The position numbers and the translations under genes are program-made. Below are positions 1-49,352 of a DNA stretch of 64,000 nt, piece after piece (positions within the stretch are counted from its first letter, which is position 1; each line of letters opens with the position of its first letter). This stretch comes from Paenibacillaceae bacterium GAS479. Its GTDB lineage: Bacteria; Bacillota; Bacilli; Paenibacillales; Paenibacillaceae. The notes beneath the pieces were generated by a model. The model saw nothing but the letters and a program-made list of their open reading frames with translations. It did not search any database and had not been told where the DNA came from. The stretch lies in assembly GCA_900105225.1 (NCBI GenBank), contig LT629764.1, forward strand, positions 384,098-448,097, read 5' to 3'.

Positions 1-1190
1 GATAAGTCGAGGTACGCAGAAGCCATGACGGGCATGAAAATAGCCCCAAGCCCAGCACCTCTTATGATGAGAGCCACTGACAAATAAATTTGGTTTGTAT
101 CGGTACCTGCTTGCAAAAAAGGCAACGTTCCCACTAGGACTAAAATAGTTCCAACCAGCACAACGGGGCGGGAACCGATTTGATCGGTCAATTTGCCCGC
201 TAACGTGCGAGTGAGCAGCATGCCGATTCCTTGAGGAACGAGCAGCAATCCAGAAATAAGTACGGATTCACCGCGAATTTGCTGATAGTAAAGCGGCAGC
301 AGCAGCATCGATCCATAGGTGGTAAGGCCGGATAAGAACAACAACATGGAGGACACCGTAAAGGAACGTACTTTAAATAGAGCTAAATCAATAAGAGCTG
401 AGTTTGCTTTTCTCAAAGCGTGTAAAGCAAAAGCAATCAATAACAGCACACCTGCTATAAAGGGAACGAGGACGGCGGCATGGCCGAAACCGTTATTGGA
501 GCCTACCTCTCCTAATCCATAAATAATCAGAACAATTGCCGGAGAAAGCAGCAGAAGCCCCAGCGTGTCTAGCTTCTGGGTGTTCGCTTCAGGCTCATCT
601 TTAGGCAATCCTTTCCAAGCCATGATTATAGCTACGATGCAAATCGGGATATTCACAAAAAATATCCAGCGCCAGCTTAAATTACCAATAATTAAACCGC
701 CCAATACCGGCCCGAGTATCGGCCCAAGCAGTGCAGGCAAGCCAGCAACCGCCATCGTTTTGCCCATTTTTTGTCCGCCGGAAGCGCGCACTCCCATCGT
801 TTGCATAATAGGCATCAGTAGACCGCCGCCGATTCCTTGAATGATCCGGAAAAATATCAGGCTTTCTACATTCCACGCCAAGCTGCACAAAATGGAACCA
901 AACAGAAACACGGTTAAAGAAAACAACCACATTTGTTTGCCGCCAAAGCGCTCTACCGCCCAACCTGTAAGCGGAATAACCATTCCAAGCGCAAGCAGAT
1001 AACTTGTCATGACCCATTGAATGGTCGACACCGTGGCATTTAGATCACGCCCCAATGTATCGATGGCAACATTCGTAATCGTCGTATCGAACAATGGCGC
1101 GAGAATACCGATGATGAGTATCCACATCATTTTTTTGGAAGCAGCCTCCTGCTCCTGCTGATGAAGAGCCACTCCATCCTGTTTCTCCAT
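1..1190 (-). CDS. DHA2-type MFS multidrug efflux transporter (3' end outside window)
   Basis: The 396 visible codons encode a membrane protein with the layout of the EmrB/QacA (DHA2, 14-helix) drug:proton antiporters. The N-terminus reads ILAPLFDTTITNVAI, then WVMTSYLLALGMVIPLTGW and GRALLGPILGPVLGGLI-like helices typical of the family. The stop codon lies beyond base 1. The ATG at 1190 follows AAGGAG with good spacing. It is divergent from a TetR gene, with an inverted repeat between them, so it is probably the repressed target. Substrate cannot be read from sequence. Confidence 0.9.
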   Translation of the reverse strand, partial: MEKQDGVALHQQEQEAASKKMMWILIIGILAPLFDTTITNVAIDTLGRDLNATVSTIQWVMTSYLLALGMVIPLTGWAVERFGGKQMWLFSLTVFLFGSILCSLAWNVESLIFFRIIQGIGGGLLMPIMQTMGVRASGGQKMGKTMAVAGLPALLGPILGPVLGGLIIGNLSWRWIFFVNIPICIVAIIMAWKGLPKDEPEANTQKLDTLGLLLLSPAIVLIIYGLGEVGSNNGFGHAAVLVPFIAGVLLLIAFALHALRKANSALIDLALFKVRSFTVSSMLLFLSGLTTYGSMLLLPLYYQQIRGESVLISGLLLVPQGIGMLLTRTLAGKLTDQIGSRPVVLVGTILVLVGTLPFLQAGTDTNQIYLSVALIIRGAGLGAIFMPVMASAYLDL

Positions 1191-36316: not shown

Positions 36317-36457
36317 TATGAAACTCCTTTCGTTAGCCTGAAAGTGCCCCTATCTCTTCACCAGTCTACCATTTATTAGGCGAAGAAGGATGGGTTCGCG
36401 CAGCGAGTTTCACTGTTAAGTTTTTAAGTCCAAGCGTTCCTTGTGAAACAAATAAAA

Positions 36458-36491
36458 GCACCACCTATTAGACATTCATAATAGGTGGCGC
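36458..36491 (-). terminator. Terminator of the seven-gene Lpl-type operon
   Basis: GCGCCACCTATTA and TAATAGGTGGTGC, 13-base stem with one G-T-type mismatch, then TTTTATTTG on the minus strand, 26 bases past the binding-protein stop. Confidence 0.85.
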
Positions 36492-36516
36492 CTTTAGTTT
36501 ACGTTCTGATTGTCAC

Positions 36517-37989
36517 TTATTTCTTATTGGCCAAGAACTCATCCAATTGACGTTGTACCTCAGCTACATACTTATCGATTCCCGCTGCTTTCAGCTTTTT
36601 AATCGCTTTAGGATACCCTGTTTCAAAATCCACAAAGCCTGAGCGAATAGCCGCCATATCCTTGCCAGCAACCTCTTTAAGCGCGGTTTCGACTAATTTA
36701 ACTTTCTCATTGTTAAAGCGGAAGCCAAGTGAAGCGGATACAACAGCCTTATCATCCCAGCTCTTATAATTATCAATAGATTCTTGTGCTACATCCGGTC
36801 CAAACAATTGATAATTTTTGTTTCTAAACATCCATTCATAGAAAAATTCATTAGCAGTCAGCTTCTTGATTCTTCCATCTACAACTTCAAAATCCTTGCC
36901 TTCGATACCATAAAGTGCAAATTGGTAATTATCTTGAGATTTATACAACCAGTTCACAAACTTAATCGCACCTTCTGGATTTGGAGCCGTTGCAGGTACG
37001 CTCAAAACCTCTCCGCCGGTTGCTGTAATATATCGCGGTTTTTCTGGTGCTAAAAGATATGTTTTAACCCTTGCTTCCGGTGCATTCGCTTTAATTGAAG
37101 CGATAATTTCCATTTCCTTGCCTAGCGATCCTTCCACCCACAGGTATAGGCCTGTTTGCATACGTGTATCTCTTTCATTATATTTAATCGTTAAATCTTC
37201 GGTATAAAGTTTGGCTTCATACATACTGCGGTTAAACTTAGCTACTTCCTGGAAAGCTTTCGTTTCATAGTAGCTATAAGCTTTTTTGGTGTCTTCGCCA
37301 AATACGATCAAATCTTCTACTGCAATAAAGTTATATTGCTCTTCTGCAAAATTTCTAGTTAGCGGTTTAAAGACAATATCAGCAGGTCCTTTCATTTGCG
37401 GGAACTTTTCTTTCGCAAGTGTGGCAAACTTTTTCAAATCATCAGCGGTCTTCACTTCGCTCATACCAACTGCCTCAAGTATATCCTGACGTACTGCTAC
37501 CAGTTGATACATAGCCGAGGACGGGGCATACGAGGTTGGAATACCGTGTATTTTACCGTCAAGCATGGCACCTTGGAATTGCTCCATTGGCAACACCTTA
37601 AGCATATCTTGGCCGTACTTCTCAATCAAATCATCTAGCGGCTGAGTTTGCTTTTTATTAACCATTGCAGCAAGATCAGGAAGACCATCCCAATAGAGAT
37701 CAATCGGTTCATTTGCGGCCAGCATAATATCTTTTTGTTCCCAATACTGAGCCCATGGCACAAATATAACATCAACCTTCAATCCAAGTTCAGTTGCCAT
37801 CTTGTCGGCAAATTCATTTTTAAGAAAATCAGTCATTCGCTCGCTTTCATCGCCTGGGTACAATATAGTGAGTGTTTCGAGCTTGGCACCGTCACCGCCG
37901 CCTTCTTTTGTGTCACCGCTACAGCTTGTTAAAATAGACGTTAATAATAACGCTGTAATCATAAAGATAAGCATTTTGCTCCTTTTCAT
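36517..37989 (-). CDS. Extracellular solute-binding lipoprotein (LplA/LipO type)
   Basis: 490 residues with signal and lipobox LTSCSG near residue 23. The large size and LYWDGLPDLAAMVNKKQTQPL, GIPTSYAPSSAMYQLVAV and NPEGAIKFVNWLYKS segments match the LipO-like family 1 proteins that pair with LplB/LplC permeases. GGGGAGGG precedes the ATG. Last gene of the operon. It should capture an oligosaccharide or glycan fragment. Confidence 0.92.
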   Translation of the reverse strand: MKRSKMLIFMITALLLTSILTSCSGDTKEGGGDGAKLETLTILYPGDESERMTDFLKNEFADKMATELGLKVDVIFVPWAQYWEQKDIMLAANEPIDLYWDGLPDLAAMVNKKQTQPLDDLIEKYGQDMLKVLPMEQFQGAMLDGKIHGIPTSYAPSSAMYQLVAVRQDILEAVGMSEVKTADDLKKFATLAKEKFPQMKGPADIVFKPLTRNFAEEQYNFIAVEDLIVFGEDTKKAYSYYETKAFQEVAKFNRSMYEAKLYTEDLTIKYNERDTRMQTGLYLWVEGSLGKEMEIIASIKANAPEARVKTYLLAPEKPRYITATGGEVLSVPATAPNPEGAIKFVNWLYKSQDNYQFALYGIEGKDFEVVDGRIKKLTANEFFYEWMFRNKNYQLFGPDVAQESIDNYKSWDDKAVVSASLGFRFNNEKVKLVETALKEVAGKDMAAIRSGFVDFETGYPKAIKKLKAAGIDKYVAEVQRQLDEFLANKK

Positions 37990-38045
37990 TGAATACCCTC
38001 CCCTTTTAATGGCTATATATGTTGAGCCTTGAATGGCCTACAACC

Positions 38046-38939
38046 TTATTCCTTTATTGCGCCCGCCATAATGCCATGTACAAAGTATTTTTGAATGTAA
38101 GGGTACAAGAAAATGATAGGTCCAATGGTGATGACGGTAACAGCCATCTTAACGGTTTCTGCGGGCAACGTTATATTTCCAGAGGCTCCTGTTGGAATAC
38201 GGCCTGAGCTGATCGCGTTTACATTGGATAAAATGCTATAGAGATAGTATTGAAGTGGAAACAAATCCTTCTCGTTGATAAAAATAAGCGCATTCCACCA
38301 ATCATTCCAGTAATTAAGCGCATACATTAGACCAACCGTCAGTAGCGCTGTTTTGCTTAGAGGAAGGGCTATCTTCACATATATTGTAAAATAATTAGCT
38401 CCATCAATCTCCGCGGCTTCATACATGGACGGTGAAATGCTGGCAAAAAAGGTTCGCATCAGGAACATATTCCAAACGCTAAAAACAGAAGGAATAATTA
38501 AAGCTAAAATACTGTTTTTCAAGCCATAATAATTGACGCTAACCATATACCATGGAATCAAGCCTGCTGAAAAAATAATGGTGAAGTTACTGATAAACGC
38601 AATTATATTTCGATATCTCAGCTTTTTTATCGATATGGCGAATGCAATCATGCTTGTAATCAGTAGTGCGCTGATCGTACCTACTACGGTTATAAAAATA
38701 GTAACACCGTAGGATCTGAGAATCTTCGCTCCACTGTTCACAAAAATATACTTATACGTGTCAATGGTAGGGCTTTGAGGGAGGATTGAATATCCGTTCC
38801 TAGTAACCGCCTGTTCTGCGGAAAAGGAAACGCTTAACGTTAATATGAGAGGGTAAAGACAAACGAGTGCAAACAGGCCAATTAATAAGTAGGCCAAGCT
38901 TATCACAAGTCTATCTCCAGCTAATCGATTGATTCCCAT
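38046..38939 (-). CDS. LplC-type ABC transporter permease
   Basis: 297 residues, six helices; EAA loop YEAAEIDGANYFTIYVKIALPL near residue 180 and the family C-terminus YFVHGIMAGAIKE. GGGAGGG lies 12 bases before the ATG. Only 2 bases separate it from the lplB-type gene, so the two are co-translated partners. Confidence 0.93.
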   Translation of the reverse strand: MGINRLAGDRLVISLAYLLIGLFALVCLYPLILTLSVSFSAEQAVTRNGYSILPQSPTIDTYKYIFVNSGAKILRSYGVTIFITVVGTISALLITSMIAFAISIKKLRYRNIIAFISNFTIIFSAGLIPWYMVSVNYYGLKNSILALIIPSVFSVWNMFLMRTFFASISPSMYEAAEIDGANYFTIYVKIALPLSKTALLTVGLMYALNYWNDWWNALIFINEKDLFPLQYYLYSILSNVNAISSGRIPTGASGNITLPAETVKMAVTVITIGPIIFLYPYIQKYFVHGIMAGAIKE

Positions 38940-38941
38940 GA

Positions 38942-39865
38942 TTAGAATAATCCCTCCCCATCATTCATTTTCTTGGCCGATTTATTGGCAGCAGTAATTA
39001 GAATTAATCCCATAACCGACTGGAATAATCCAATCGCCGTAGAGTAAGAAAAGCCCAAGGATCGCATAGATGCATAAACATAAGTATCGATGACCGTTAC
39101 TTCGTCAGCTAATACCGGGTTATTGCCAACAATTCCGTAAATCATGCCAAAGTCACCATAAAAGATTCGACCCACACTCAGCAAAGTTAAAACGATGATA
39201 GTCGGTTTAAGCATAGGGATGGTTAGATAAAAAATACTTTGCAGTTTATTGGCGCCATCTACTTTAGCCGACTCATATAAACTTCCATCGAAGTTAGCCA
39301 TTGCAGCCATGTAGATAATAGAGCTGTATCCGCTCCATTTCCAAACACTCGCAAGAATAATGATCCACTTCCAGTACTTCGGCTCTGAATACCAACTGAT
39401 GGGTTCTGCACCGAAGAACTTTAATATATTGTTGGCAACGCCAACATCCGTCGAAAAGATACCGTAAAGAATAGCGCCTACAACTACCCATGAGATGAAA
39501 TACGGGAAAAACATCATGCTTTGAGCTACCCGTTTGTATGCATCATTTCGTATTTCGTTTAATAAAATGGCAATACCAACAGGGACAATTATCCCTAAAA
39601 TGATGCCGAAAAAGTTGATGTATAACGTATTGTAGATAACCTTCCAGCCCATGCTGTTAGAAAAAAAGTATTTGAAATTATCCAGTCCAACAAACTTACT
39701 GCCAAATATTCCATCCACGACGTTAAAATCGGTAAACGCCATCCATATTCCGGCAAAAGGAATATAGCTGAACATAAGCAACACAATTAGAGCAGGCAAA
39801 CACATGAGATACAATAGCCTGTTTTTCATGATCTCGGACAGAAAGCCCTTCACAGCTGAACCCAT
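38942..39865 (-). CDS. LplB-type ABC transporter permease
   Basis: 307 residues, six helices; EAA loop YESAKVDGANKLQSIFYLTIP near residue 205, and N-terminal PFAGIWMAFTDFNVVDGIFG as in LplB proteins. AAAGG precedes the ATG. The ATPase is again not encoded nearby. Confidence 0.93.
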   Translation of the reverse strand: MGSAVKGFLSEIMKNRLLYLMCLPALIVLLMFSYIPFAGIWMAFTDFNVVDGIFGSKFVGLDNFKYFFSNSMGWKVIYNTLYINFFGIILGIIVPVGIAILLNEIRNDAYKRVAQSMMFFPYFISWVVVGAILYGIFSTDVGVANNILKFFGAEPISWYSEPKYWKWIIILASVWKWSGYSSIIYMAAMANFDGSLYESAKVDGANKLQSIFYLTIPMLKPTIIVLTLLSVGRIFYGDFGMIYGIVGNNPVLADEVTVIDTYVYASMRSLGFSYSTAIGLFQSVMGLILITAANKSAKKMNDGEGLF

Positions 39866-39878
39866 TGCATCACTACCT

Positions 39879-41156
39879 TTACATAATTATCAAGCTATCA
39901 TTCTGTAAGGATTGTTGCAGCTCTTCCTTTAAACGGTCGATATCAATCCCGACACCGCTCACCCTCGCTTCTTCGGCTGCATACGCCATAATATGACTTT
40001 CTACAGAACGATCAATAGAGGATCTGCTGTTGAAATCAGAGGTTTCCAAATGCTCTAGGAAATCGTTCATCAGCCCTACATCGCCGCCATTATGTGCGCC
40101 ATTCATAGCGCCTGGCCGGATAATCGTTTGCTCATATTTCTCAGCACCATTTGAAGTAAACTTTGTTACTTCAATTACATTTAAGTCGTCATCTCCAGTA
40201 ATCTCGCCATGTTCACACATGATTTTCATCGTACGATGCATTTTATTTGTGAAACCGCTTAAATTAAAGGTTGCTGTTACGCCATTTTTAAACTCAATTA
40301 GCGAAACCTGATGATCGCAAACGTTATTATCTGTTCGATAAACACAGCGTCCGTAAGGGCTTGTTTCCAATGCTTTTAATAGTCCCTCTTCTGTCTGATC
40401 CCCCGTTACAGCCGTAGCAGGCCACTGCCCTCTCACAGGCATATACGCTTTTTGTGCATCAAATCGGCAATCTGAGGCCACTTCACAATCCAAGCATCGA
40501 TCTGCACTATTTGCCGGTGCATTCTCTTCCTTAAAGTAAGTCAGGTCACCATAAGAAGAAATCCGCTTTGCATCGCTATCTACCAGCCAGGTGAGAATAT
40601 CCATGTCGTGGCAGGATTTTTGCATAATAATAGGGCTTGCAAGGTCGCTTCTTCTCCAGTTGCCTCTTACAAATGAATGAGCCATATGGAAATTCCCAAT
40701 ATTCTCGGTATGCTGGATCGTAACGATCTTCCCTAGCTCTCCGCTGTCGATGATTTTTTTTATTTCGGCAAAAAAGTTTGTATATCGAAGGACGTGACAC
40801 ACGATTACCTTCCGGCCTTTTTCATTCGCTTTTTGTTGTATTCTCAAACATTCCTCTGGACTCGGCGATATGGGCTTTTCCAACAGAATGTCATACCCAA
40901 TATCAAGCGCTCTCATCGTCTGCACGAAGTGGTCTCTGTCCATTGAAGCAATAATAATTGCATCGCAGATTTTGCCTAGTTTATAAAAATCATCTACCGA
41001 TTTAAACTGTCGTTCCAAAGGAATCCCAAACTTGTCTGCCGCAACCTTCCGTCTCCAATCATGCGGCTCAACCACCGCAACAATGTCTACACTTTGCGCA
41101 GCATACTCTGAGTAAATCATCCCTCTTTGCCCTGCACCGATTAATGCTATTTTCAA
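39879..41156 (-). CDS. Gfo/Idh/MocA family oxidoreductase
   Basis: 425 residues. The NAD(P)-binding start KIALIGAGQRGMIYSEYA, the EKP motif (DILLEKPISPSPEE near 95) and the C-terminal alpha/beta dimer domain are present. A CLDCEVASDCRFDA cysteine cluster near 225 could bind a metal. The frame opens at 41174 (GTG) but GGAGG lies within it, 8 bases before TTG 41156, so that start is chosen. Probably oxidises a sugar or sugar acid released by this locus. Confidence 0.9.
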   Translation of the reverse strand: MKIALIGAGQRGMIYSEYAAQSVDIVAVVEPHDWRRKVAADKFGIPLERQFKSVDDFYKLGKICDAIIIASMDRDHFVQTMRALDIGYDILLEKPISPSPEECLRIQQKANEKGRKVIVCHVLRYTNFFAEIKKIIDSGELGKIVTIQHTENIGNFHMAHSFVRGNWRRSDLASPIIMQKSCHDMDILTWLVDSDAKRISSYGDLTYFKEENAPANSADRCLDCEVASDCRFDAQKAYMPVRGQWPATAVTGDQTEEGLLKALETSPYGRCVYRTDNNVCDHQVSLIEFKNGVTATFNLSGFTNKMHRTMKIMCEHGEITGDDDLNVIEVTKFTSNGAEKYEQTIIRPGAMNGAHNGGDVGLMNDFLEHLETSDFNSRSSIDRSVESHIMAYAAEEARVSGVGIDIDRLKEELQQSLQNDSLIIM

Positions 41157-41202
41157 ATCATCTACCTCCAGCACTCAAGTGTATGTCTCAGACGTTGCAT
41201 AC

Positions 41203-42282
41203 CTATTCCGGAACTTTAGGGTCTTCCAATGGGTAATAACCTTCGGGATAATATGAATCCCATATATTCAAAAGTGGATCTACAGTTGTTACTTCGACCT
41301 TCACCGTGCCCGCCTCATAGTATCCAGCCTGTTCATTGGCCCTAATATTCAGGTGGAGATGGGTTCGATCCTTGAAAAAGAGTGCAAAGCTTAACGTATA
41401 TTCTCCCGGCTGCATAACCGGCAATTGTATAATTTCGTTATGGACAAAGTCTCCTGTTAACCATGAATCCGTTGCCGCTTGCAAGGGGAACTCATGGGCT
41501 GAATCCCCTTTCACTACCTTCACCCATAGACTAAAATCATCATAAATTTTGGAAATTCCCGTATTAACAAACCAAAAGCGAAGCGGCAAGCTGCCATTGC
41601 TGGATACGGTTTCTGGATAAGTCAGCCTTCGCAAAGCAAGGTTATATCCCAGCCCCGCGCTCAAGTTGGCATGACTTGCGTGCCATCGGTACGCCTCACG
41701 TCTAATATGAGGACCACAATCATCATCTGTCACATGAAGGACAACCGGACTGCTTTTCCATACATGCTGCAGCTTTTGTTTAGCAAAGGCCTCACAGCAT
41801 TCCATCCAGTTCTCTTCGTTGCACTTTACTAGCAAGCCAAAAGTACGGCCATGTAAATAACGGATTAGTTTATGATTGTGCAAATCGGCAAGGAGGTTCT
41901 GATGCTCAAAAGAATCGATATAAGCATTCCATTCCTCCTTGCTGTCAGCCAGAGTCGAGATTACAACGCCAACCAAACGTCCCTCTGAATCGATATAGCT
42001 CCCGACTTTTCTTATAAAAGCTGCAAAACTGTCACTCGGATGGCTTCTCACCCATAAGGGAATATCCGGCTGGAGTACAAGTATTGGATTTGATGCTGCA
42101 TGAAGAGCTTTCTCTATCTCCTGGAGCCAATAAACCCCTCTAGCCGGCTCCAGCTCTTTCCATGAACATGTCACATATTCGAACTGCCCATTTTTTTGAG
42201 GATCATCAAGGCTAGGTAAAGGATGAGGTCGAATTTTTATCGTTTTATACTTTTCATAGTTTTCAAGCGAATATTTCCCCAT
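41203..42282 (-). CDS. TIM-barrel protein with C-terminal DUF4832-like domain, shortened
   Basis: 359 residues. The first 200 look like a reduced glycoside-hydrolase barrel (CSWKELEPARGVYWLQEIEKAL, NPILVLQPDIPLWVRSHP, VVLHVTDDDCGP), the last 150 a beta-sandwich beginning LALRRLTYPETV. The 43601-44935 product has the matching LRKLTYSSEV junction and the same ending, DSYYPEGYYPLEDP versus GYTDGYYPMGTV, so the two are paralogues. Clear catalytic acids are not evident here. GGGAGG precedes the ATG. Confidence 0.7.
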   Translation of the reverse strand: MGKYSLENYEKYKTIKIRPHPLPSLDDPQKNGQFEYVTCSWKELEPARGVYWLQEIEKALHAASNPILVLQPDIPLWVRSHPSDSFAAFIRKVGSYIDSEGRLVGVVISTLADSKEEWNAYIDSFEHQNLLADLHNHKLIRYLHGRTFGLLVKCNEENWMECCEAFAKQKLQHVWKSSPVVLHVTDDDCGPHIRREAYRWHASHANLSAGLGYNLALRRLTYPETVSSNGSLPLRFWFVNTGISKIYDDFSLWVKVVKGDSAHEFPLQAATDSWLTGDFVHNEIIQLPVMQPGEYTLSFALFFKDRTHLHLNIRANEQAGYYEAGTVKVEVTTVDPLLNIWDSYYPEGYYPLEDPKVPE

Positions 42283-42294
42283 CCAATTGCCTCC

Positions 42295-43593
42295 CTATAA
42301 ATGGCTGTCAACTGTTTCAGAGAAATCTTCAATATCCGCGGCTGTTATATAGGGCTCGTTTCCTATCCCTTCAATCTCCTCTTTCAATACAATCATGCTT
42401 GTTGTATTAAATCGGGAGCCGTTCCCCATATATGCCCAAGCTGCCTTTTGCAATGAAGTCGTTAATCGTTCCGGATGATCACTGAGATCTCCCTCCCGGT
42501 TTTTAAACAACTCATAGCGCAGCATGCCGTCTCCATCGAAGGTTGGATAATTATAAAACTGTCTTTGAACGAGCACGATATTGCTTTTTTCATTGTCCAA
42601 GAGAAGCGATAATTTAGCATCGTACAGCCAGCTTGCGCTCCAGAATCCTTTAATGGGTATCTCAGCAAAATATTTGGAAAATAGACTGATGGCCATAACC
42701 ATAGAGTTTTTTAGCCTCTCTGGTGTATAACCGGGTCCGGCTGGGATATGAAGCGCTAACAAAATATCCCCTCTTTGCAGGGCCGGATTCCATTCCTGCT
42801 TGTTTATAGCTGTCGTTGTTCTTTCTGTGAAACCCATAGGATTGATTCGGTTGGCAGTGATCGCATGATCGGTTTCTTCCCAAGCCGACAGGAACGGACT
42901 GCGATGATCAAACACCTCATTGATTCCATCCCGTTGCCCATCACTGCGGAACTTTAATCCACCATGCTGAAACGCGATAACTTTTTGCGTTTGCACATTA
43001 CGATAAGCCGTAAATTCATCATCGAATCGATGCGGGATAAACAGAAAACGATCCAATCGGAAAATCGAACATGTATAGAAATTCATATCCCACGGAAAGT
43101 CCTGTACTTTACCATCGCCGTGTAAAACCAGTTTTTCGAGTTGGCCCTTTAGAGGCTGATGGGGTATGTTTTCGTAATACATTTTGGGAACGCCGCGCTC
43201 CTCCAACCTCTTCATGGAAGGGGCAACACAGGCAAGCAACAAGAGAAATGAATATAAGTCGCTATATTGCTCCATACATCCTGGAGTCATATTTGTATAA
43301 AAGCTTTCATCACAGCGCATACGCGCTGTGCACATATCCTGGACTAAAAATTGCGTAAAACGAAATAAAATTTCATCATTTTCAATAGCTTCAAGCCCGT
43401 TAACCAGCAATTGCCCTGTATGCTCAGGAATTTGATATTGAGCAAAAATAGTAGACAGAAACTCGCGTGGAATTAAATGGGTATCTTCATCCAATTGATA
43501 ACGCTTACATTTATCCTCTAAACCTTCGGGCAAATAATCAAAATTGCAGTATTCAGCCGATTTTTTAAAATCCAGCCGAACTTCCTTATCCAT
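42295..43593 (-). CDS. Two-domain acyltransferase-like protein (NAT_N plus GNAT_C type)
   Basis: 432 residues. An all-helical N-terminal half (YCNFDYLPEGLEDKCKRYQ to about 150) and a C-terminal GNAT-like half with LLALHIPAGPGYTPERLKNSM, GFWSASWLYDAKLSLLL and SNIVLVQRQFYNYP, the pattern of the NAT_N/GNAT_C proteins annotated as acyltransferases. The substrate is unknown. AAAGGGG lies 10 bases before the ATG; 7 bases separate it from the preceding gene. A sugar acyltransferase in a catabolic operon is unusual. Confidence 0.75.
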   Translation of the reverse strand: MDKEVRLDFKKSAEYCNFDYLPEGLEDKCKRYQLDEDTHLIPREFLSTIFAQYQIPEHTGQLLVNGLEAIENDEILFRFTQFLVQDMCTARMRCDESFYTNMTPGCMEQYSDLYSFLLLLACVAPSMKRLEERGVPKMYYENIPHQPLKGQLEKLVLHGDGKVQDFPWDMNFYTCSIFRLDRFLFIPHRFDDEFTAYRNVQTQKVIAFQHGGLKFRSDGQRDGINEVFDHRSPFLSAWEETDHAITANRINPMGFTERTTTAINKQEWNPALQRGDILLALHIPAGPGYTPERLKNSMVMAISLFSKYFAEIPIKGFWSASWLYDAKLSLLLDNEKSNIVLVQRQFYNYPTFDGDGMLRYELFKNREGDLSDHPERLTTSLQKAAWAYMGNGSRFNTTSMIVLKEEIEGIGNEPYITAADIEDFSETVDSHL

Positions 43594-43600
43594 TCGATGT

Positions 43601-44935
43601 TTATCCCCTTTCGATGACTACTGTCCCCATTGGATAATATCCGTCCGTATAGCCTTCAATCGCAAGTTTTACATTCCCAATTTCTTTTACACCGGTTTCG
43701 ATGCCAATCTCCAGCATATACTCTCCTGCAGCAGCCTCGCTCGGTACAGGGATGCTTTCTTCCCACGCAATATCCTCATCCGGCCGCCATTCCCTTATAT
43801 CTTCTTTGCTATAAAGCGTATATGTTCCGTTCTTGCCTCTTAGCCTCAGCACAAGCGGATATTGATTATAGATCGGAGCAACCCCCACATTAGCCCATAG
43901 AGAAGCAATGTCCAACTCCCCGCCCGCCTTAACTTCAGAACTATAAGTTAATTTTCTTAATTCATATCGATATCCCATCTTCTTCAGCCAACGTTCGATA
44001 TTATCTTTCCATGGCTCCGGAACAGTAGTCCCTTTGTTGTTAAAAGAAGAAATATGCCACTTGAGTGTTTCCTCAATGATGTAATCAATATCCCAGCCCT
44101 GAATATGCCAATCATTCATATGCCAGCAAGCTTCAAATAAAATCGGGGCTCTCTGCCAGGCGTCAGCCATTTGAAAGTTCTGTATATTTTGAGGATAAAA
44201 ATCATTCATATGCGACCATTCTGCTCCATGAAAACCTCCCATATCTCCTAAACAGTCAACGCGGAAGCCCACCTTGGCTCTTCTGTCCTTGATAATTCTC
44301 GAAGATAGCGGGTCATGCAATAGCGCTTGGAGCGGTGTCGTTTTAAATCCATCTAGATAGGCGTCTGTAATGCGCTGAATAGACTCTGGCTGCAGGAACT
44401 CCGTACCTCCTCCTTCCCCCCACGCTCCTACAATTGTTAAATCAATAGAGCTAATAACGGGATGACCATCGTACTTTTCGGCAAAAGCACTAATAAAGTC
44501 GGACCAATACTCCACATAACGTGTTGTATGGGGATCTACTCTCCAGAAGGGAAATTCGGGCTCCTCCGGGACTTCTGTTCTGAACCACTCGGGAATATCA
44601 TCCTCGGGGTTTAGCGCATATGGAGAACACCGTACTACAGCCGTACAACCTAAGGATTTGGCGTAATCCAGCTTCTGCTCTAACACTTCCCATCGGTATA
44701 AACCCTTGGTAACTTCTATATCTCTCCAACGTGCACTGCAAAAATAGACTTTACTATCGGGATGATTGTACGTCCTGCTATCTTCCGTAAATTTATACTT
44801 CTCTACCTTTTCCCCACGGTTGTCATACACATCGTCTACGTCGCTCATCAATCCAGGTGCTGTAGTAAAACCAATGCCAGGATTCGTTATTAAGCCATCA
44901 ATGATCGCAGGGTATACCGTAACTGCTTTATTCAT
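43601..44935 (-). CDS. Putative glycoside hydrolase (TIM barrel plus DUF4832)
   Basis: 444 residues, no signal peptide. NPGIGFTTAP and SARWRDIEVTKGLYRWEVLEQ open a beta/alpha barrel; ISSIDLTIVGAWGEGGG near 170 offers a candidate acid/base glutamate after strand 4, as in clan GH-A. The last 150 residues are a DUF4832 beta-sandwich (LRKLTYSSEVKAGGELDI, WANVGVAPIYNQYPLVLRL). First gene of the operon, divergent from LacI. Intracellular cleavage of an imported oligosaccharide is the likely role; the linkage is unknown. Confidence 0.75.
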   Translation of the reverse strand: MNKAVTVYPAIIDGLITNPGIGFTTAPGLMSDVDDVYDNRGEKVEKYKFTEDSRTYNHPDSKVYFCSARWRDIEVTKGLYRWEVLEQKLDYAKSLGCTAVVRCSPYALNPEDDIPEWFRTEVPEEPEFPFWRVDPHTTRYVEYWSDFISAFAEKYDGHPVISSIDLTIVGAWGEGGGTEFLQPESIQRITDAYLDGFKTTPLQALLHDPLSSRIIKDRRAKVGFRVDCLGDMGGFHGAEWSHMNDFYPQNIQNFQMADAWQRAPILFEACWHMNDWHIQGWDIDYIIEETLKWHISSFNNKGTTVPEPWKDNIERWLKKMGYRYELRKLTYSSEVKAGGELDIASLWANVGVAPIYNQYPLVLRLRGKNGTYTLYSKEDIREWRPDEDIAWEESIPVPSEAAAGEYMLEIGIETGVKEIGNVKLAIEGYTDGYYPMGTVVIERG

Positions 44936-44985
44936 GCCTTATCAGCTCCCAACTATGTATACTTCACAGTGATCATCGCCCAATA

Positions 44986-45029
44986 TTGTTACGTGATTTG
45001 TTACGTAATTAATGATTTGTTTAGTAATT
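44986..45029. promoter_or_regulatory. Repeated TTGTTACGTAATT boxes, candidate LacI-type operators
   Basis: Three related boxes lie in the 315-base divergent gap: TTGTTACGTGATT (44986-44998), TTTGTTACGTAATT (44997-45010) and TTTGTTTAGTAATT (45016-45029). The middle contains the palindrome TTACGTAA. The rest of 44936-45250 is AT-rich promoter-like sequence without a gene. Confidence 0.45.
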
Positions 45030-45250
45030 CATGGTGCAATTATACCACTTTAATTCCATGCTGCAAGCCAATTTTAAAAAATTTAAATGTTTAGTTCACC
45101 CCACATACTACCTTATCCATATGGTACTATATAGCTTAATACGCCTGTTACGTTTATGTATTAACGAACGGCTAGGAGCGTTTACGCAACAAATCTCGTA
45201 CACAGCGTATCATGACCGCTATTAGCCTATTAAAGGAGCTGTACCTATTT

Positions 45251-46273
45251 ATGAGTACGATTAGAGATGTTGCCAAATTAGCAACCGTGTCCACGGCCAC
45301 TGTATCTAGAGTTTTAAACAATGATACAACCTATAAAATTACCGATAAAACCCGTGAAAGAGTTTGGCAGGCTGTTACACAGCTTAACTATAAACTTACC
45401 TCAAGTCCTAAACGTCAATCAGGGGTAAAAGATGATTCTACTTCGCAGACAACTATCAAAATAGGTTGTGTATTAAGCGTTACTAAAAATAAATATAACG
45501 ATCCCTATTTTATGTCTATATTATCCGGTATCGAAGAAAGATTGCTTCATACAGGGCATTCGATTGCCTTTATTCGCACTGGGCCTGAATTAGATGATAA
45601 AAAAATCTTGTTTAATACTTTTAATGAATCGATAACAGGTCTTATTATTATGGAATCCTTAAAGAGCGAAACCTATGAGTACCTGCGCAATCAGGTTCCA
45701 CATATAGTCGGCATTGATACAGAACGTGGCGAAATCGACAACGTAGGTTATGATCATTACAATGTTGCCTCGCTGGCTGTTAACCATTTGATCCAAAAAG
45801 GACATACAAATATTGGATTTATCGGTGGAAGCGCCGCTTCGAGCAACTTGAAAGAAAGCAGACGCTATCGCGGCTACTACGCTAGCATGCATGCTGCCGG
45901 ATTGTCCGTAAATCCCGAATGGGTTATTAATTGCTTTTGGGACGAGGATATTTGTACCGAAAAAGTTAATCATTTATGCCAAACAAAAAATGTACCAACT
46001 GCTTTTTTCGCTGCGAGTGATTTGATGGCTATGGCGGCGCTTAACAGCTTGTATAACAATGGGATCTCGGTGCCAGATGAAGTAGCTGTTATCGGCTTAT
46101 CCAATATTGAAGTATCCAAGTATTCTAATCCACCTTTAACAACAATCGACGTGCCAACCAATGAAATCGGGATCGTAGCTGTAGATCTTTTGTTAGACCG
46201 TATTAACAGAAATAGCATGCTTCCGAAGAAGGTCATTTTACCTACGCGTTTGATTGAGCGGAGCTCAACTTGA
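45251..46273 (+). CDS. LacI family regulator of the Lpl-type operon
   Basis: 340 residues. N-terminal helix-turn-helix STIRDVAKLATVSTATVSRVL and hinge, then a periplasmic-binding-protein fold (IKIGCVLSVTKNKYNDPYFM, HTNIGFIGGSAASSN, VPTAFFAASDLMAMAAL). ATG 45251 starts exactly at the family's conserved beginning; AAAGGAG is 12 bases upstream. Divergent from the seven-gene operon. Likely a repressor released by the imported sugar. Confidence 0.9.
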   Translation: MSTIRDVAKLATVSTATVSRVLNNDTTYKITDKTRERVWQAVTQLNYKLTSSPKRQSGVKDDSTSQTTIKIGCVLSVTKNKYNDPYFMSILSGIEERLLHTGHSIAFIRTGPELDDKKILFNTFNESITGLIIMESLKSETYEYLRNQVPHIVGIDTERGEIDNVGYDHYNVASLAVNHLIQKGHTNIGFIGGSAASSNLKESRRYRGYYASMHAAGLSVNPEWVINCFWDEDICTEKVNHLCQTKNVPTAFFAASDLMAMAALNSLYNNGISVPDEVAVIGLSNIEVSKYSNPPLTTIDVPTNEIGIVAVDLLLDRINRNSMLPKKVILPTRLIERSST

Positions 46274-46342
46274 GGAGATTGTTGGAGTGGTTTAGTTCGA
46301 CTTTGAGGGCGTAATCCAGTTGCGTACCGAGTTCGGCTTTCA

Positions 46343-46387
46343 GCGTGGCTACAAGTACTCCACCGAGTGGAACACTTGTAGCCACGC
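46343..46387. repeat. Long perfect hairpin downstream of the LacI gene
   Basis: GCGTGGCTACAAGT (46343-46356) and ACTTGTAGCCACGC (46374-46387) pair perfectly, with an inner TCCAC/GTGGA stem. It lies 70 bases after the LacI stop without a T run, so it may be an element end or processing hairpin rather than a terminator. Confidence 0.6.
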
Positions 46388-46390
46388 CAA

Positions 46391-46626
46391 CTAAGAGCGA
46401 TTAATAAGCCATCCATCGCCTGATGCGGATATACTCCAGTCTGACCGACTGAGATAAAGAGCTTCTAAGCGGTCAAGCTCAGCTCCATTCCTTCTTACAC
46501 GCTTTTCACCAGTAGAATTTCAGCGAAGGTGTTCCTGTACTTTAAAGAGCCGTTGCCCGGCCGCTCTTTCACGGCTTCCAACCGGTCAACCATCGCCTGA
46601 AGCTCTGCCTGTTCGGAAATATCCGC
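46391..46626 (-). pseudogene. Decayed copy of the 5' part of the GNAT gene
   Basis: Blocks such as GTCGCCTGATGCGG-like, CTAAGCGGTCAAGCTC, GCCCGGCCGCTCTTTCACGG and CCGGTCAACCAT align in order with 36010-36295, the first third of the GNAT gene at 35438-36316. Indels break the frame and the 3' part is absent. Homology ends at 46626, next to the AT-rich cassette. Confidence 0.75.
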
Positions 46627-46627
46627 A

Positions 46628-47326
46628 TCATTCAATCTTTATAAATCTAAGAAATTCTTTTCCAAAATCAGTGATGTAAAGTGATGTCAGCCCCTCACGC
46701 CCCAAATCCTGTATCGTATTGCCAATTGATTTCTGATCTATAAGTAATGATTTTGATATTAAATCACAAATGTAAAATTCATACTTACCGTGGGCTTCAA
46801 TAGTAGTTATATTCGTGTAGTTATCTTTAATTCTCTTGATAATTCTATCTTTATAAGTAGCGATTGTTAACATATTCAAACAACCATCCATGCCTTCACT
46901 AATATCCATACTTCCTGATCTTCCAGTGTTCTCATACATTTTTAAAATTTCTATTTCAATAAAATCCAATCTATTAATTAGGTCCAAAAATGTTTCTTTA
47001 AAATCAGACTGATAATTAACCGTCAAACTATTTACTAGAATATCTCGAAAGACATTTAATTTATCTTTATTATTAGTATCGATCACTCGTCGTATTATTG
47101 CAGAATAAATATCATTAAACTCCTCTGAACTTATAGCATTTTCATCATATTCAAGTTCAAGAGATTTTAAATAAAGTAAAAAGCTATCCACAAAATCATT
47201 TATTCTTTTTTGTGCTATTCTTCCTCGAATTTCAAACAATCCTTCATTTAGTGCCCCTCCATAAGGGAACAAAGAAATACTAGCTTTAAATATTCCGATT
47301 AAAGTTTCCTTCAATGGATTGTCCAT
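46628..47326 (-). CDS. Accessory-region protein of unknown function
   Basis: 232 residues, AT-rich. The N-terminus ASISLFPYGGALNEGLFEIR followed by GRIAQKRINDFVDSFLLYL resembles a recurrent opening in uncharacterised accessory-genome proteins; the C-terminal half (IGNTIQDLGREGLTSLYITD) is winged-helix-like. It begins 3 bases after the previous stop, so is translationally linked to the 47330 gene. The stop codon falls at the junction with the GNAT remnant, so the last residues may be altered. Immunity or phage defence is possible but unproven. Confidence 0.6.
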   Translation of the reverse strand: MDNPLKETLIGIFKASISLFPYGGALNEGLFEIRGRIAQKRINDFVDSFLLYLKSLELEYDENAISSEEFNDIYSAIIRRVIDTNNKDKLNVFRDILVNSLTVNYQSDFKETFLDLINRLDFIEIEILKMYENTGRSGSMDISEGMDGCLNMLTIATYKDRIIKRIKDNYTNITTIEAHGKYEFYICDLISKSLLIDQKSIGNTIQDLGREGLTSLYITDFGKEFLRFIKIE

Positions 47327-47329
47327 GTA

Positions 47330-47650
47330 TTACATACACCTCATATCAATAGAGCTTTTGTCTATCTTATCAAAAAATAATTGCGCAGTTTCAAATACTT
47401 CAAAATAGAATTCCTTTTCTTTAATTAATTCGAAATATCCGGGAACAGGTAGTTCCTCTATTTTTAAAAATGGGATTGAATTAATACACTTTATTAAATC
47501 TTTATTTTGGCTCACTAGCGTTGCATTAATGTTATCAGAATCTTCATAAGATTCTGTGTAATTTGGTTTTGCATATAAAAAATCCTTTACAATGGAATGG
47601 AGAGGTAGACCTGTCCATAAATCCACTGAAAAGGATATCTGTATGGACAA
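47330..47650 (-). CDS. 5'-truncated gene paired with the 46628 gene
   Basis: 106 codons. The portion from about SIVKDFLYAKPNYTESYEDS to the stop is AT-rich and acidic like its partner; the first 20 codons are GC-richer and overlap the IS4-type fragment that reads the other way. The original start was probably lost when the IS entered. No domain recognised. Confidence 0.5.
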   Translation of the reverse strand: MSIQISFSVDLWTGLPLHSIVKDFLYAKPNYTESYEDSDNINATLVSQNKDLIKCINSIPFLKIEELPVPGYFELIKEKEFYFEVFETAQLFFDKIDKSSIDMRCM

Positions 47651-48347
47651 TCATAGGCTATTTTCCTCATTTGGTAAATGGCTTGCGCTGATTTGTACAA
47701 AAACGTTCACATCCGCCGTAGCGGAAGCCCCGCAGGATAAATACACGAAAAAGCTGATGACTAGCGCCTATCTCAAGCTGTTTCTGCTTGCACAGCTGCA
47801 AAACCGCGAAGGCTTGCGCCACATAGCTGACGATGTCCTGTGCGAAGAATTGCAACGTGAGCTAGGACTGACTTCCATCTCGGCCTCACAGCTTAGCCGC
47901 AAACACAAACAAGTCGATCCCGAGCTTCTGCGACACGTCTTTGAGCTGCTCGCGAAGCGCGTGTTAGCTGCGCAAGGTACGACTGCGCAGCATCATAAGA
48001 TCAAAATCATCGACTCGACCACCGTCACGTTGTGTCTACAGAAATTTAAATGGGCCGAGTTCCGCAAGACGAAAGCGGGCATCAAAATTCACATGCGACT
48101 GGCTTATCTGGATGGGCACGAGGTCATTCCGGAGAAAGCAACGGTTACTGTAGCGAAGAGAAATGATCGCACGCAAATGGAAGAACTTGTTCATGAGCCT
48201 GGTGTAACCTACATTTTTGATCGTGGTTACATCGACTACGCCGTATTTGATCGCTACTGCCGGGATGAGATTTTTTTCGTGACCCGCCTGAAGAGTAATA
48301 CGCACATCGAGCCTCGGGAGGAGATGGATGTGCCTGCAGGCAGCTAG
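47643..48347 (+). mobile_element. IS4-family transposase fragment, 3' truncated
   Basis: 234 residues of a DDE transposase: FGKWLALICTKTF start, first Asp in KIKIIDSTTVTLC, second Asp in VTYIFDRGYIDYAVFDRYC. The frame ends at MDVPAGS soon after FVTRLKSN, before the domain carrying the catalytic Glu (YREL-type motif), so about one third is missing and it is inactive. GC content matches the host and differs from the AT-rich flanks. IS ends are not clearly identifiable; 48348-48465 is AT-rich filler. Confidence 0.8.
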
Positions 48348-48465
48348 AATATTATTGCTTATTTTAATATCAATATATCCTTTTCAAAATTAAGCTAACC
48401 CAAAAGGATTATTTAGCAACATTGTAGAATATTTTACCAAAACTCAAAAATAAGGAGACGAGAGT

Positions 48466-48897
48466 ATGCAAGGATATAATGTGCTGATGATATACAATAA
48501 AGATATGGATCGGCTACTAATGTGCAAACGATTAAAGAACCCCTATAAAGGATTAAGTAATCTGGTTGGCGGTAAGATCGATATTGGTGAAACTGGAATA
48601 GAAGCTGCTTACAGAGAGCTTTTTGAAGAAGCAAATATTGCAAAAGAAAACATCACTTTGCATCACCTAATGGATTTTAAATACTATTTTCAACGTTGCT
48701 ACGTTGAAGTTTATGTCGGCAAATTGAAATATGATGTAGTTGTATCAGGAGATGAAAATGAATTATTCTGGTCTGATTTGAATCAAGATTTTTTTGACAT
48801 GACCTTATTTGCGGGTGAAGGTAATATTGGACATATGATTGAACAAGTAAAGATGAGCAAAAGTATTCTGACTGATGAACTTCTCACACAACAGTAA
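48466..48897 (+). CDS. NUDIX hydrolase
   Basis: 143 residues. The Nudix box is GGKIDIGETGIEAAYRELFE followed by EANI; the REL-x-EE core that binds metal is intact, with Asn in place of the last Gly. It should hydrolyse a nucleoside-diphosphate-linked compound, perhaps a damaged dNTP (MutT/8-oxo-dGTP type). AAGGAG lies 8 bases before the ATG. AT-rich, within the accessory segment; a small hairpin follows. Confidence 0.88.
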   Translation: MQGYNVLMIYNKDMDRLLMCKRLKNPYKGLSNLVGGKIDIGETGIEAAYRELFEEANIAKENITLHHLMDFKYYFQRCYVEVYVGKLKYDVVVSGDENELFWSDLNQDFFDMTLFAGEGNIGHMIEQVKMSKSILTDELLTQQ

Positions 48898-48911
48898 AAG
48901 GTTCCAATATG

Positions 48912-48933
48912 ACCGCCTTTTCGTAAAGGCGGT
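48912..48933 (+). terminator. Hairpin after the NUDIX gene
   Basis: ACCGCCTTT and AAAGGCGGT pair around TCGT, 14 bases past the stop; a moderate T-rich tail follows. Confidence 0.6.
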
Positions 48934-49081
48934 ATTCTGTTTGTATGAAAATAAATATTAGACTTCAGCTAGGGCGTGTATGCAAACTATGAAAAAGGCT
49001 TAATCGGTGGTCTATTCTATTTCCCTCTTGACTAAAGAGAGCGTTGTCAAACTTGATCCGTTAAGATAAGATAGGAGGCAT

Positions 49082-49105
49082 AAAAGTTAAAGGGCTTAAA
49101 CTTTT
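49082..49105. promoter_or_regulatory. LacI-type operator candidate O1
   Basis: AAAAGTTAAAGGGCTTAAAC plus TTTT, an imperfect palindrome. Its reverse complement matches O2 at 49329 in 22 of 24 positions. The rest of 48934-49377 has no gene; it holds a GC-rich repeat near 49259. Confidence 0.6.
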
Positions 49106-49258
49106 CTTTTTATCTTTAGACTCTATATTTGCTGAACTAGAGAAACAACGCGAGGAAGCGGAGCGAACCGGCCTTCTGTAGAAGCAACGCGTTCGCATTT
49201 GTAGGCGGATTCCCCCTTATAAGGGGCAGAAATCAAGGAATCTGACTACAAGAGCGAT

Positions 49259-49293
49259 CGGAAGAAGGATTGGTTCGCGCAGCGAATTTCGCT
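49259..49293. repeat. Interspersed repeat, also present near 36383
   Basis: GAAGAAGGATTGGTTCGCGC with AGCGAATTTCGCTGTTA recurs at 36383-36418 with three substitutions, upstream of the intact GNAT gene. It may be a dispersed repeat or part of the GNAT duplication. Confidence 0.65.
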
Positions 49294-49328
49294 GTTATAC
49301 TCTCAAGCTCAACTCTTTTTTTTCACCC

Positions 49329-49352
49329 TAAAGTTTAAGCGGTTTAACTTTT
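49329..49352. promoter_or_regulatory. LacI-type operator candidate O2
   Basis: TAAAGTTTAAGCGGTTTAAC plus TTTT, an imperfect palindrome 26 bases ahead of the LacI start and inverted relative to O1 about 247 bases away. The pair would allow looping. Confidence 0.65.

What the first reader, a model, noticed from the sequence alone, without database searches (positions are those of the whole stretch)
36517..46273. Seven-gene LacI-controlled glycan locus joining Lpl-type transport, two DUF4832 barrels and an acyltransferase-like enzyme
Seen: one tight minus-strand operon (gaps 2-56 bases, own terminator) with LplB/LplC permeases, a LipO-type binding protein, a Gfo/Idh dehydrogenase, two related TIM-barrel/beta-sandwich proteins and a NAT_N/GNAT_C-type acyltransferase, divergent from LacI. 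Inference: imported glycan is cleaved inside the cell by the 43601 product, oxidised by the dehydrogenase, and an acyl group is added or removed. The combination does not match a pathway I know.
Basis: partly seen in the sequence, partly recalled or inferred. Interest (0 to 1): 0.65.

Follow-up and report, generated by a model that had tools for sequence, protein, structure and literature searches.

The report
Sugar-uptake operon with antibiotic-type acyltransferase
A bacterial sugar-import operon, kept together in distant relatives, pairs a likely glycosidase and its inactive twin with a relative of the enzymes that decorate glycopeptide antibiotics, suggesting that the cell re-acylates imported amino sugars before breaking them down.

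Summary
Seven minus-strand genes (36517-44935; gaps 2-56 bases; terminator-like stem 36496-36453) lie divergent from a LacI gene (45212-46273). It is not a one-off: in 29 named loci found through the acyltransferase (AT; Paenibacillus, Cohnella, Anaerocolumna, Scatolibacter, a Clostridia MAG) the Gfo/Idh gene is present in 29 of 29 and both DUF4832 genes in 26, lost together in 3. Two loci are re-ordered but still clustered. AT is a full-length relative of the teicoplanin/A40926 N-acyltransferases (model vs 4q36: Z 20.7, next family 5.7), with a histidine invariant in 69 of 69 members. AT paralogues (not the orthologs) lie beside N-acetylgalactosaminidases above chance (GH123 5 of 67, GH109 4 of 67 sites). 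43601-44935 is a DUF4832 protein with a clan GH-A-like barrel and two conserved Glu; 41203-42282 is its paralogue without them, found full-length only in this operon. Best reading, inferred: an imported hexosamine oligosaccharide is N-acylated by AT, cut by the glycosidase with its pseudo-enzyme partner, and oxidised by the Gfo/Idh enzyme. Substrate and order of steps are unproven. New variant of a known kind (ABC/LacI sugar operon).

The parts
43601..44935 (-). D1: DUF4832 protein, no signal peptide seen, clan GH-A-like barrel + C-terminal beta-sandwich; Glu174 (44416-44414) after the presumed beta-4 and Glu268 (44134-44132) at the end of the presumed beta-7
   Evidence: both Glu invariant in 13 orthologs; Glu174 invariant in 25 rows incl. 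5 secreted relatives; Glu268 not
42295..43593 (-). AT: NAT_N + GNAT_C acyltransferase, relative of Orf11*/tcp24 and Dbv8; invariant His282 (42750-42748)
41203..42282 (-). D2: shortened paralogue of D1 without the two acids; conserved C-terminal tail (YYPEGYYPLEDP)
   Evidence: full-length form in 13 of 240 genomes, each time at this operon (coordinates as)
39879..41174 (-). GFO: Gfo/Idh/MocA oxidoreductase with conserved EKP lysine, QKSCHDMD motif and Cys-rich insertion
38942..39865 (-). LplB-type ABC permease
38046..38939 (-). LplC-type ABC permease
36517..37989 (-). extracellular solute-binding lipoprotein (SBP_bac_1 + DUF3502)
   Evidence: lipobox LTSC read by eye from the translation
45212..46273 (+). 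LacI-family regulator, divergent
   Evidence: ortholog in 28 of 29 named loci
44996..45013 (.). operator-like half-sites (TTACGTAACAAA) between regulator and operon
   Evidence: motif better kept than shuffles (mean best 4.84 vs 6.73 mismatches), but derived from and scored on the same 25 intergenic regions (25 of 30 loci taken); weak
36453..36496 (-). intrinsic-terminator-like stem after the binding-protein gene

Best explanation
A LacI-controlled operon for uptake and intracellular breakdown of an oligosaccharide that carries a free (de-N-acetylated) hexosamine, most likely galactosamine or glucosamine. The lipoprotein and LplB/LplC permeases import it (the ATPase is encoded elsewhere; inferred). 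AT transfers an acyl group, probably acetyl, from acyl-CoA to the 2-amino group of a terminal hexosamine. D1, a GH-A-type glycosidase, then cleaves the glycosidic bond, with D2 as a non-catalytic partner subunit. The Gfo/Idh enzyme oxidises the sugar with NAD(P). In 3 species where D1/D2 are lost, a secreted DUF4832 hydrolase beside the LacI gene may do the cutting outside the cell. Shown: operon structure, conservation, folds, conserved residues, co-loss, linkage of the AT family to N-acetylgalactosaminidases. Inferred: substrate, acyl group, order of steps, D1-D2 complex.
For: Conserved set in 29 named loci, two of them re-ordered but still clustered. D1 and D2 are lost together in 3 of 29, and those 3 all carry the secreted DUF4832 gene next to LacI (8 of 29 overall; p 0.015 ignoring relatedness). 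The AT model matches only the glycopeptide N-acyltransferases over its length (Z 19.8-20.7, next family 5.7). His282 in 69 of 69 aligned family members. AT paralogue sites lie within 6.5 kb of GH123 in 5 of 67 (0.16 expected) and of GH109 in 4 of 67 (0.03 expected). In 19 genomes taken because they have GH109, AT paralogue sites near GH109 are 4 of 13 against 0 of 129 listed DUF3502 binding-protein sites (p 4e-5; 4 of 17 if the orthologs are counted in, p 1e-4). One AT paralogue lies in an ABC operon with NagA (TIGR00221 315 bits, cut-off 226) and a ROK kinase, another beside GH123 and a Spherulin4 gene. A D1 homologue (40%) lies near NagA (336 bits) and ROK genes, another directly after a 45% GFO homologue. 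SIR_1591, a TIM-barrel + DUF4832 protein, disperses GalNAc-rich Pel aggregates, and PelA hydrolase and Sph3 do not cut GalN oligosaccharides (PMC12345266, passages), which gives a reason to N-acetylate first.
Against: The 15 AT ortholog sites have no GH123 or GH109 nearby (0 of 15); the amino-sugar link comes from paralogues about 30% identical. Paralogue contexts are mixed (gamma-glutamyltranspeptidase, arylsulfatase, GH43, GH95/GH29, UbiD, amidase). ROK and sulfatase genes are as common in control regions (2 of 15 each) as near paralogues (1 and 4 of 32). AT orthologs have Asp181 where the paralogues have Gly, so acceptors may differ. 3 of 29 loci do without D1/D2. No amino-sugar kinase or deacetylase is in the operon. 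The D1 model is moderate (mean pLDDT 75; the Glu174 loop under 50; Foldseek TM-scores only 0.27-0.37), so the acid geometry is untested, and Glu268 is not aligned with a Glu in the secreted relatives.
Confidence: 0.42

Rival explanations
1. AT is a side enzyme, like galactoside acetyltransferase LacA: it acylates imported sugar analogues or dead-end products so that they can leave the cell, and is not a step of the pathway.
For: A sugar acyltransferase in a sugar operon is known from lac (recalled). The two Anaerocolumna loci carry an MFS transporter gene between D2 and GFO, and the Clostridia MAG an MFS gene after D2, which could be an exporter.
Against: AT paralogues are linked to specific hexosaminidases. 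No inserted MFS gene in the window's operon. (AT being present in 29 of 29 loci says nothing here: the loci were found through AT.)
Confidence: 0.15
2. A 3-keto-glycoside route: GFO oxidises C3 of the imported glycoside, D1/D2 cleave the keto-glycoside, and AT works in reverse or on hydroxyls, handling an acyl-sugar substituent.
For: GFO gives weak NCBIfam matches, far below cut-off, to disaccharide/glycoside 3-dehydrogenases BT_2159/BT_2158 among others. D1 homologues (about 40%) have an AXE1-type esterase-like gene next to them in 4 of 8 loci (L148, L149, L151, L152). Three AT paralogues lie by a Gfo/Idh gene and a xylose-isomerase-like TIM barrel.
Against: No isomerase-like or other keto-hydrolase gene in the operon. 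The best NCBIfam matches of GFO are inositol and UDP-GlcNAc dehydrogenases, also far below cut-off. The only whole-length structural relatives of AT are amine acylators.
Confidence: 0.17
3. GFO is itself a Gfo/Idh-fold glycosidase with a GH109-like oxidation-elimination mechanism, and D1/D2 are accessory.
For: AT + GFO is kept in all 29 loci, D1/D2 are not. In four genomes an AT paralogue lies within 1.3 kb of GH109, a Gfo/Idh-fold glycosidase.
Against: GFO has no match to PF21252 (GH109 C-terminal domain) at E<=1, and the window's genome has none.
Confidence: 0.1
4. The operon takes up and inactivates an amino-sugar antibiotic or signal rather than a nutrient.
For: AT's only whole-length structural relatives act on glycopeptide antibiotics.
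Against: DUF3502-type binding protein, LacI control and a GH-A-like enzyme point to carbon use; several paralogues lie among glycosidases.
Confidence: 0.05

Closest known systems
Teicoplanin / A40926 N-acyltransferases (Orf11*/tcp24, Dbv8; PDB 4q36, 4mfj, 4mfz)
   Same: NAT_N + GNAT_C architecture over the whole length, conserved His in LxLHxP, SWL motif
   Different: Found here in a transport operon in Bacillota instead of an antibiotic cluster; 14-18% identity in structural alignment; about 90 residues longer; acceptor and acyl chain unknown
DUF4832 glycosidases such as SIR_1591 of Streptococcus intermedius (PMC12345266, passages); DUF4832 genes contiguous with pel clusters (PMC7112168, passages)
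   Same: TIM barrel resembling beta-amylase/beta-galactosidase plus C-terminal DUF4832 sandwich
   Different: D1 has no signal or membrane segment, sits in an uptake operon and has an acid-less twin (D2); SIR_1591 has a transmembrane helix and lies beside pel genes; the two sequences were not compared here
LacI-controlled Lpl/LipO-type sugar ABC operons of Paenibacillus
   Same: SBP_bac_1 + DUF3502 lipoprotein, two permeases, no own ATPase in the operon, divergent LacI
   Different: Enzyme content: DUF4832 pair + glycopeptide-type acyltransferase + Gfo/Idh
Lysosomal heparan alpha-glucosaminide N-acetyltransferase (HGSNAT) step (recalled)
   Same: Idea of N-acetylating a terminal hexosamine so that an exo-glycosidase can cut
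   Different: Unrelated membrane enzyme (recalled); analogy of logic only, not tested

Membership tests
NAT_N/GNAT_C glycopeptide-type N-acyltransferase | both Pfam domains above curated cut-off | tested here: met
   GNAT_C 57.0 (cut-off 22.8), NAT_N 34.5 (27.8)
NAT_N/GNAT_C glycopeptide-type N-acyltransferase | whole-chain fold shared with Orf11*/Dbv8 | tested here: met
   4q36 Z 20.7, rmsd 5.0, 305 aligned, model 7..405; next family Z 5.7
NAT_N/GNAT_C glycopeptide-type N-acyltransferase | conserved His (LxLHxP; its catalytic role in Orf11* is recalled, not read) | tested here: met
   His282 in 69 of 69 aligned members; aligned with tcp24
NAT_N/GNAT_C glycopeptide-type N-acyltransferase | transfers a fatty acyl group to the 2-amino group of glucosamine | not testable with these tools
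   needs enzyme assay
Clan GH-A glycoside hydrolase (D1) | (beta/alpha)8 barrel | tested here: met
   GH10 xylanases, GH42, an exo-mannosidase and beta-amylases at Z 12.0-12.9 (rmsd 4.1-5.3, 226-255 aligned); Foldseek E to 5e-8 but TM-scores 0.27-0.37 and large rmsd
Clan GH-A glycoside hydrolase (D1) | Glu after beta-4 and Glu at the end of beta-7 | tested here: inconclusive
   Glu174 and Glu268 fall there by the strands (with a short strand near residues 22-23 taken as beta-1) and are invariant in 13 orthologs; the Glu174 loop has pLDDT under 50 and Glu268 is not aligned in secreted relatives
Clan GH-A glycoside hydrolase (D2) | the same two acids | tested here: not met
   the Glu174 segment is deleted; His, His, Gln, Ser instead of Glu268 in the four D2 rows
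GH42 (PF02449) | Pfam match above cut-off | tested here: inconclusive
   no match in the window's D1 at E<=1, 35.5 bits (cut-off 21) in the Clostridia MAG ortholog in L080
Gfo/Idh/MocA oxidoreductase | N-terminal Rossmann and C-terminal domain models above cut-off, EKP motif | tested here: met
GH109 | PF21252 C-terminal domain | tested here: not met
   no match in GFO at E<=1; none in the window's genome
DUF4832 (PF16116) | score above cut-off 29.2 | tested here: met
   D1 65.3; D2 29.9 (marginal)
Lpl-type ABC importer | SBP with DUF3502 and two BPD_transp_1 permeases | tested here: met
   the LplC protein scores 24.7, slightly under the cut-off of 26.4

The most novel reading that the evidence does not exclude
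A re-N-acetylation route for cationic galactosamine glycans (Pel- or galactosaminogalactan-like): the bacteria import partly de-N-acetylated oligosaccharides, put the acetyl groups back with an enzyme of the glycopeptide-antibiotic acyltransferase fold, and only then cut them with a heteromeric glycosidase made of an active DUF4832/GH-A subunit and a pseudo-glycosidase subunit. It would define a catabolic role for this acyltransferase family and a new two-subunit glycosidase.
Probability: 0.22. Interest if true: 0.72.

Novelty: new variant of a known kind. Interest (0 to 1): 0.5.

Why it matters
If right, it gives a catabolic function to a protein family whose solved structures come only from lipoglycopeptide antibiotic synthesis, and a biochemical reason for N-acylation in uptake operons: glycosidases that need an N-acetyl group cannot act on free amino sugars. 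It also offers a clean case of an active/inactive glycosidase pair kept and lost together, and a handle on how Bacillota may feed on cationic biofilm polysaccharides. All of this is testable with a few purified proteins.

Tried and rejected
Rejected: D2 as a second active glycosidase (no catalytic acids). GFO as GH109. Operon as an isolated oddity. D1 in phages: no tblastn match at 1e-5 in 50,697 phage records. An SGSH-type N-sulfatase beside AT paralogues: the Pfam match to SGSH_C suggested it, but NCBIfam calls the protein an arylsulfatase above cut-off, so I dropped the heparan-like reading.

Led nowhere: literature searches for GNAT_C/NAT_N as words (only noise), teicoplanin acyltransferase structures (listing without such a paper), Dbv8/Orf11 (none), keto-glycoside/Gfo-Idh (listing only), Paenibacillus galactosamine clusters (listing only), the combination of families (none); a GNAT review has no occurrence of 'glycopeptide' (PMC4964394, term search). 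A PDB profile search with the GFO alignment gave nothing at 1e-15. A LacI operator motif is weak because found and scored on the same regions. The first neighbourhood control (15 regions 100 kb away) held ROK in 2, sulfatase in 2 and a partial Gfo/Idh match in 1, but no NagA, GH123, Spherulin4 or full-length GH109; the 32 test regions held NagA 1, ROK 1, GH123 2, Spherulin4 1, sulfatase 4, GH109 1 at full length (plus 3 partial Gfo/Idh matches), fucosidase 7. That control is too small to decide, so site rates were used. In one search, four genomes (G151, G032, G183, G126) had been included because of their AT-GH123 pairs, which biases that test; it also showed 1 of 150 binding-protein sites near GH123. 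One search leaves those genomes out. The binding-protein list was cut off by the tool, so 129 and 150 are listed rows only. The Poisson null ignores clustering of sugar genes, assumes 6.8-Mb genomes, and uses the GH123 rows listed down to E 5.5e-71 of a cut-off list. Of 32 paralogue regions fetched, AT was located in 30; only part of the neighbouring proteins was annotated. The 29 loci had to hold one of two peptide patterns, so more distant ones may be missed.

Full report
1. What is there. Seven minus-strand genes between 44935 and 36517 are separated by 7, 12, 28, 13, 2 and 56 bases and end in an 18-pair terminator-like stem at 36496-36453. A LacI gene is divergent at 45212-46273. In order of transcription I call them D1 (DUF4832), AT (NAT_N + GNAT_C), D2 (DUF4832), GFO (Gfo/Idh/MocA), LplB, LplC and the binding protein SBP (SBP_bac_1 + DUF3502). 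No NCBIfam model reaches its cut-off for any of the eight proteins. The window lies in one 5.52-Mb contig; the closest named relative of the locus is in Paenibacillus herberti (AT 93% identical).

2. Conservation. AT was searched in 245 genomes of the bacterial family: 39 match, of which 14 (own genome included) hold orthologs at 54-100% identity; the other matches are about 23-32% identical paralogues. Around the 13 other orthologs, 12 have the whole set in the same order and one (L040) lacks D1 and D2. A scan of 84,980 named species genomes with the ortholog alignment gave 29 loci: 21 Paenibacillus, 2 labelled Bacillus sp., 2 Cohnella, 2 Anaerocolumna (one a MAG), Scatolibacter rhodanostii and a Clostridia MAG; Anaerocolumna and Scatolibacter are class Clostridia. 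In the 29: AT 29 (by construction), GFO 29, LplB/LplC/SBP 28 (in L069 the contig ends), LacI 28 (no match in L080), D1 and D2 26 each and missing together in L064, L068 and L073. L079 has the order GFO-D1-AT-D2-LplB-LplC-SBP, and L080 GFO-AT-LplB-LplC-SBP-D1-D2. The order changes while the set stays together, which argues for a functional link.

3. The DUF4832 pair. D1 shows no signal peptide (by eye). Its AlphaFold2 model (mean pLDDT 75, pTM 0.79, 60 residues under 50) is a barrel plus beta-sandwich. Foldseek's best matches are PslG, beta-amylases, GH35 and other beta-galactosidases and GH158, with E to 5e-8 but TM-scores of only about 0.3; VIA-align gives GH10 xylanases, GH42, and beta-amylases at Z 12.0-12.9. 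By the strands, with a short strand near residues 22-23 counted first, Glu174 follows beta-4 and Glu268 ends beta-7, the positions of acid/base and nucleophile in clan GH-A (recalled rule). Both are invariant in 13 orthologs. Glu174 is also kept in 5 secreted relatives (25 of 25 rows); Glu268 is not aligned there. The ortholog in L080 scores above the GH42 cut-off. D2 aligns with D1 over barrel and sandwich (hhalign 99.8%, E 1e-28), but the stretch around Glu174 is deleted and Glu268 is replaced by His, His, Gln and Ser in the four D2 rows. Full-length D2 is found in 13 of 240 family genomes, each time at this operon. D1 at 64% or more is likewise in 13 of 240, while a second group of 38-47% D1 homologues lies elsewhere in 8 genomes. 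Joint presence, joint loss and missing acids make D2 a probable pseudo-enzyme partner. D2 also ends in an almost unchanging tail (YYPEGYYPLEDP).

4. A secreted counterpart. A DUF4832 protein of about 656 residues with a signal-like N-terminus lies directly behind the LacI gene, same strand, in 8 of 29 named loci (L056, L057, L059, L061, L064, L065, L068, L073). All 3 loci without D1/D2 have it, against 5 of 26 with D1/D2 (p 0.015, ignoring relatedness). So an outside cutter may replace the inside one. In L076/L044 a relative with its domains in the other order lies further off.

5. The acyltransferase. The AT model is good (pLDDT 88.4, pTM 0.86). Five PDB entries reach E 0.001 in Foldseek, all glycopeptide N-acyltransferases. 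VIA-align: 4q36 (with octanoyl-CoA and teicoplanin) Z 20.7, rmsd 5.0, 305 residues, then 6iix, 4mfk, 4mfz, 4mfj; the next family is at Z 5.7. The sequence profile search agrees (E 1.6e-7). His282 in LALHIPSGPG aligns with the LGLHVPEWGG histidine of tcp24 and is present in 69 of 69 aligned family members, with Trp168 and Trp322. I recall this histidine as catalytic in Orf11*; no held paper was found to check it.

6. What the family does elsewhere. 71 of 245 genomes of the bacterial family have GNAT_C proteins, but only 4 of 398 in a phylum-wide draw, two of these from the same family. Among the non-orthologous members looked at, one lies in an ABC operon with NagA (TIGR00221 above cut-off) and a ROK kinase (L047), one with GH123, an ABC transporter and a Spherulin4 gene (L048; Spherulin4 is the Sph3 type, recalled), one with a second GH123 (L101), four with an arylsulfatase and an alpha-fucosidase, one with GH109 and a melibiase-like gene (L097), one with GH109, GH95 and a fucosidase (L128), three with Gfo/Idh and isomerase-like genes. 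Others lie near gamma-glutamyltranspeptidase, GH43, GH2, UbiD, amidase or genes not annotated here, so the family is not confined to amino sugars. Counting sites, GH123 lies within 6.5 kb of 5 of 67 (expected 0.16, Poisson 9e-7) and GH109 (over 200 bits) of 4 of 67 (expected 0.03, 4e-8). Against binding-protein sites in 19 genomes taken because they have GH109: 4 of 13 versus 0 of 129 listed, p 4e-5; with the four orthologs of these genomes counted, 4 of 17, p 1e-4. For the operon's own clade the count is 0 of 15 for both families. I read this as: the family acylates hexosamines in several catabolic settings, and in this clade D1/D2/GFO take the place of the hexosaminidases. That last step is inference.

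7. The D1 side points the same way, weakly. Among 8 loci of D1 homologues, L148 has D1 directly after a 45% GFO homologue in an ABC operon with a GH42-like gene, and L149 has NagA (above cut-off) and ROK genes near D1; four have an AXE1-type esterase-like gene beside D1. A DUF4832 protein with reported activity, SIR_1591, disperses GalNAc-rich Pel aggregates; the same paper states that PelA hydrolase and Sph3 cannot hydrolyse GalN oligosaccharides (PMC12345266, passages). DUF4832 genes are contiguous with pel clusters in streptococci and clostridia (PMC7112168, passages). A cell that imports partly de-N-acetylated oligomers would gain from putting the acetyl group back first.

8. Mechanism, with status. 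Import by SBP/LplB/LplC: inferred from families. Relief of repression by LacI: inferred; a TTACGTAACAAA-like motif at 44996-45013 is a candidate operator. N-acylation by AT: fold and His shown, acceptor inferred. Cleavage by D1: fold and conserved acids shown, activity inferred. D2 as partner: inferred. Oxidation by GFO: family shown, substrate unknown. Overall confidence 0.42.

9. Known or new. Each part belongs to a described family. I found no paper describing the combination (searches, open-licence PMC only, seen as listings with a few passages). I rate it a new variant of a known kind.

Noticed in passing
window 46274-49377: Between the LacI gene and the next ORF set (49378-52702, same lengths and spacing as L032:13882-17206) the window has about 3.1 kb holding a 232-aa ORF (46628-47326 -) and, by eye, a transposase-like ORF (47592-48347 +); in L032, from the closest relative, the interval is about 0.3 kb, so this looks like a recent insertion beside the operon.
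   Followed up: partly
G000:C1:3872989, 3875188, 3887473, 1466748, 1469676, 1389755: The window's genome holds six more DUF4832 proteins, four of them in two close pairs; the one at 1389755 looks secreted and has a GLWGNWGEHH stretch like D1's Glu174 segment.
   Followed up: no
G000:C1:300074-300511: A second, shorter GNAT_C protein of the window's genome lies beside what look by eye like an aminopeptidase gene and two-component genes.
   Followed up: no
L047:8382-9803, L093:6129-7490, L101:6041-7465: A protein of about 450-475 residues recurs directly beside AT paralogues, with NagA/ROK in L047 and GH123 in L101; no Pfam match for the L047 and L093 copies: a candidate unknown amino-sugar enzyme.
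   Followed up: no
L149:5439-7520, L151:5611-7470, L152:8876-10384, L148:8886-10865: An AXE1-type esterase-like gene of 500-695 residues recurs next to D1 homologues, suggesting acyl chemistry around this glycosidase family in general.
   Followed up: partly
L102, L103, L105: AT paralogues 1-34 bases from a gamma-glutamyltranspeptidase-type gene: a possible non-sugar amine acceptor.
   Followed up: no
window 41203-41260 (D2 C-terminus): D2 ends in an almost invariant tail YYPEGYYPLEDP after its beta-sandwich in the orthologs read, absent from D1; it could be an interaction peptide.
   Followed up: no
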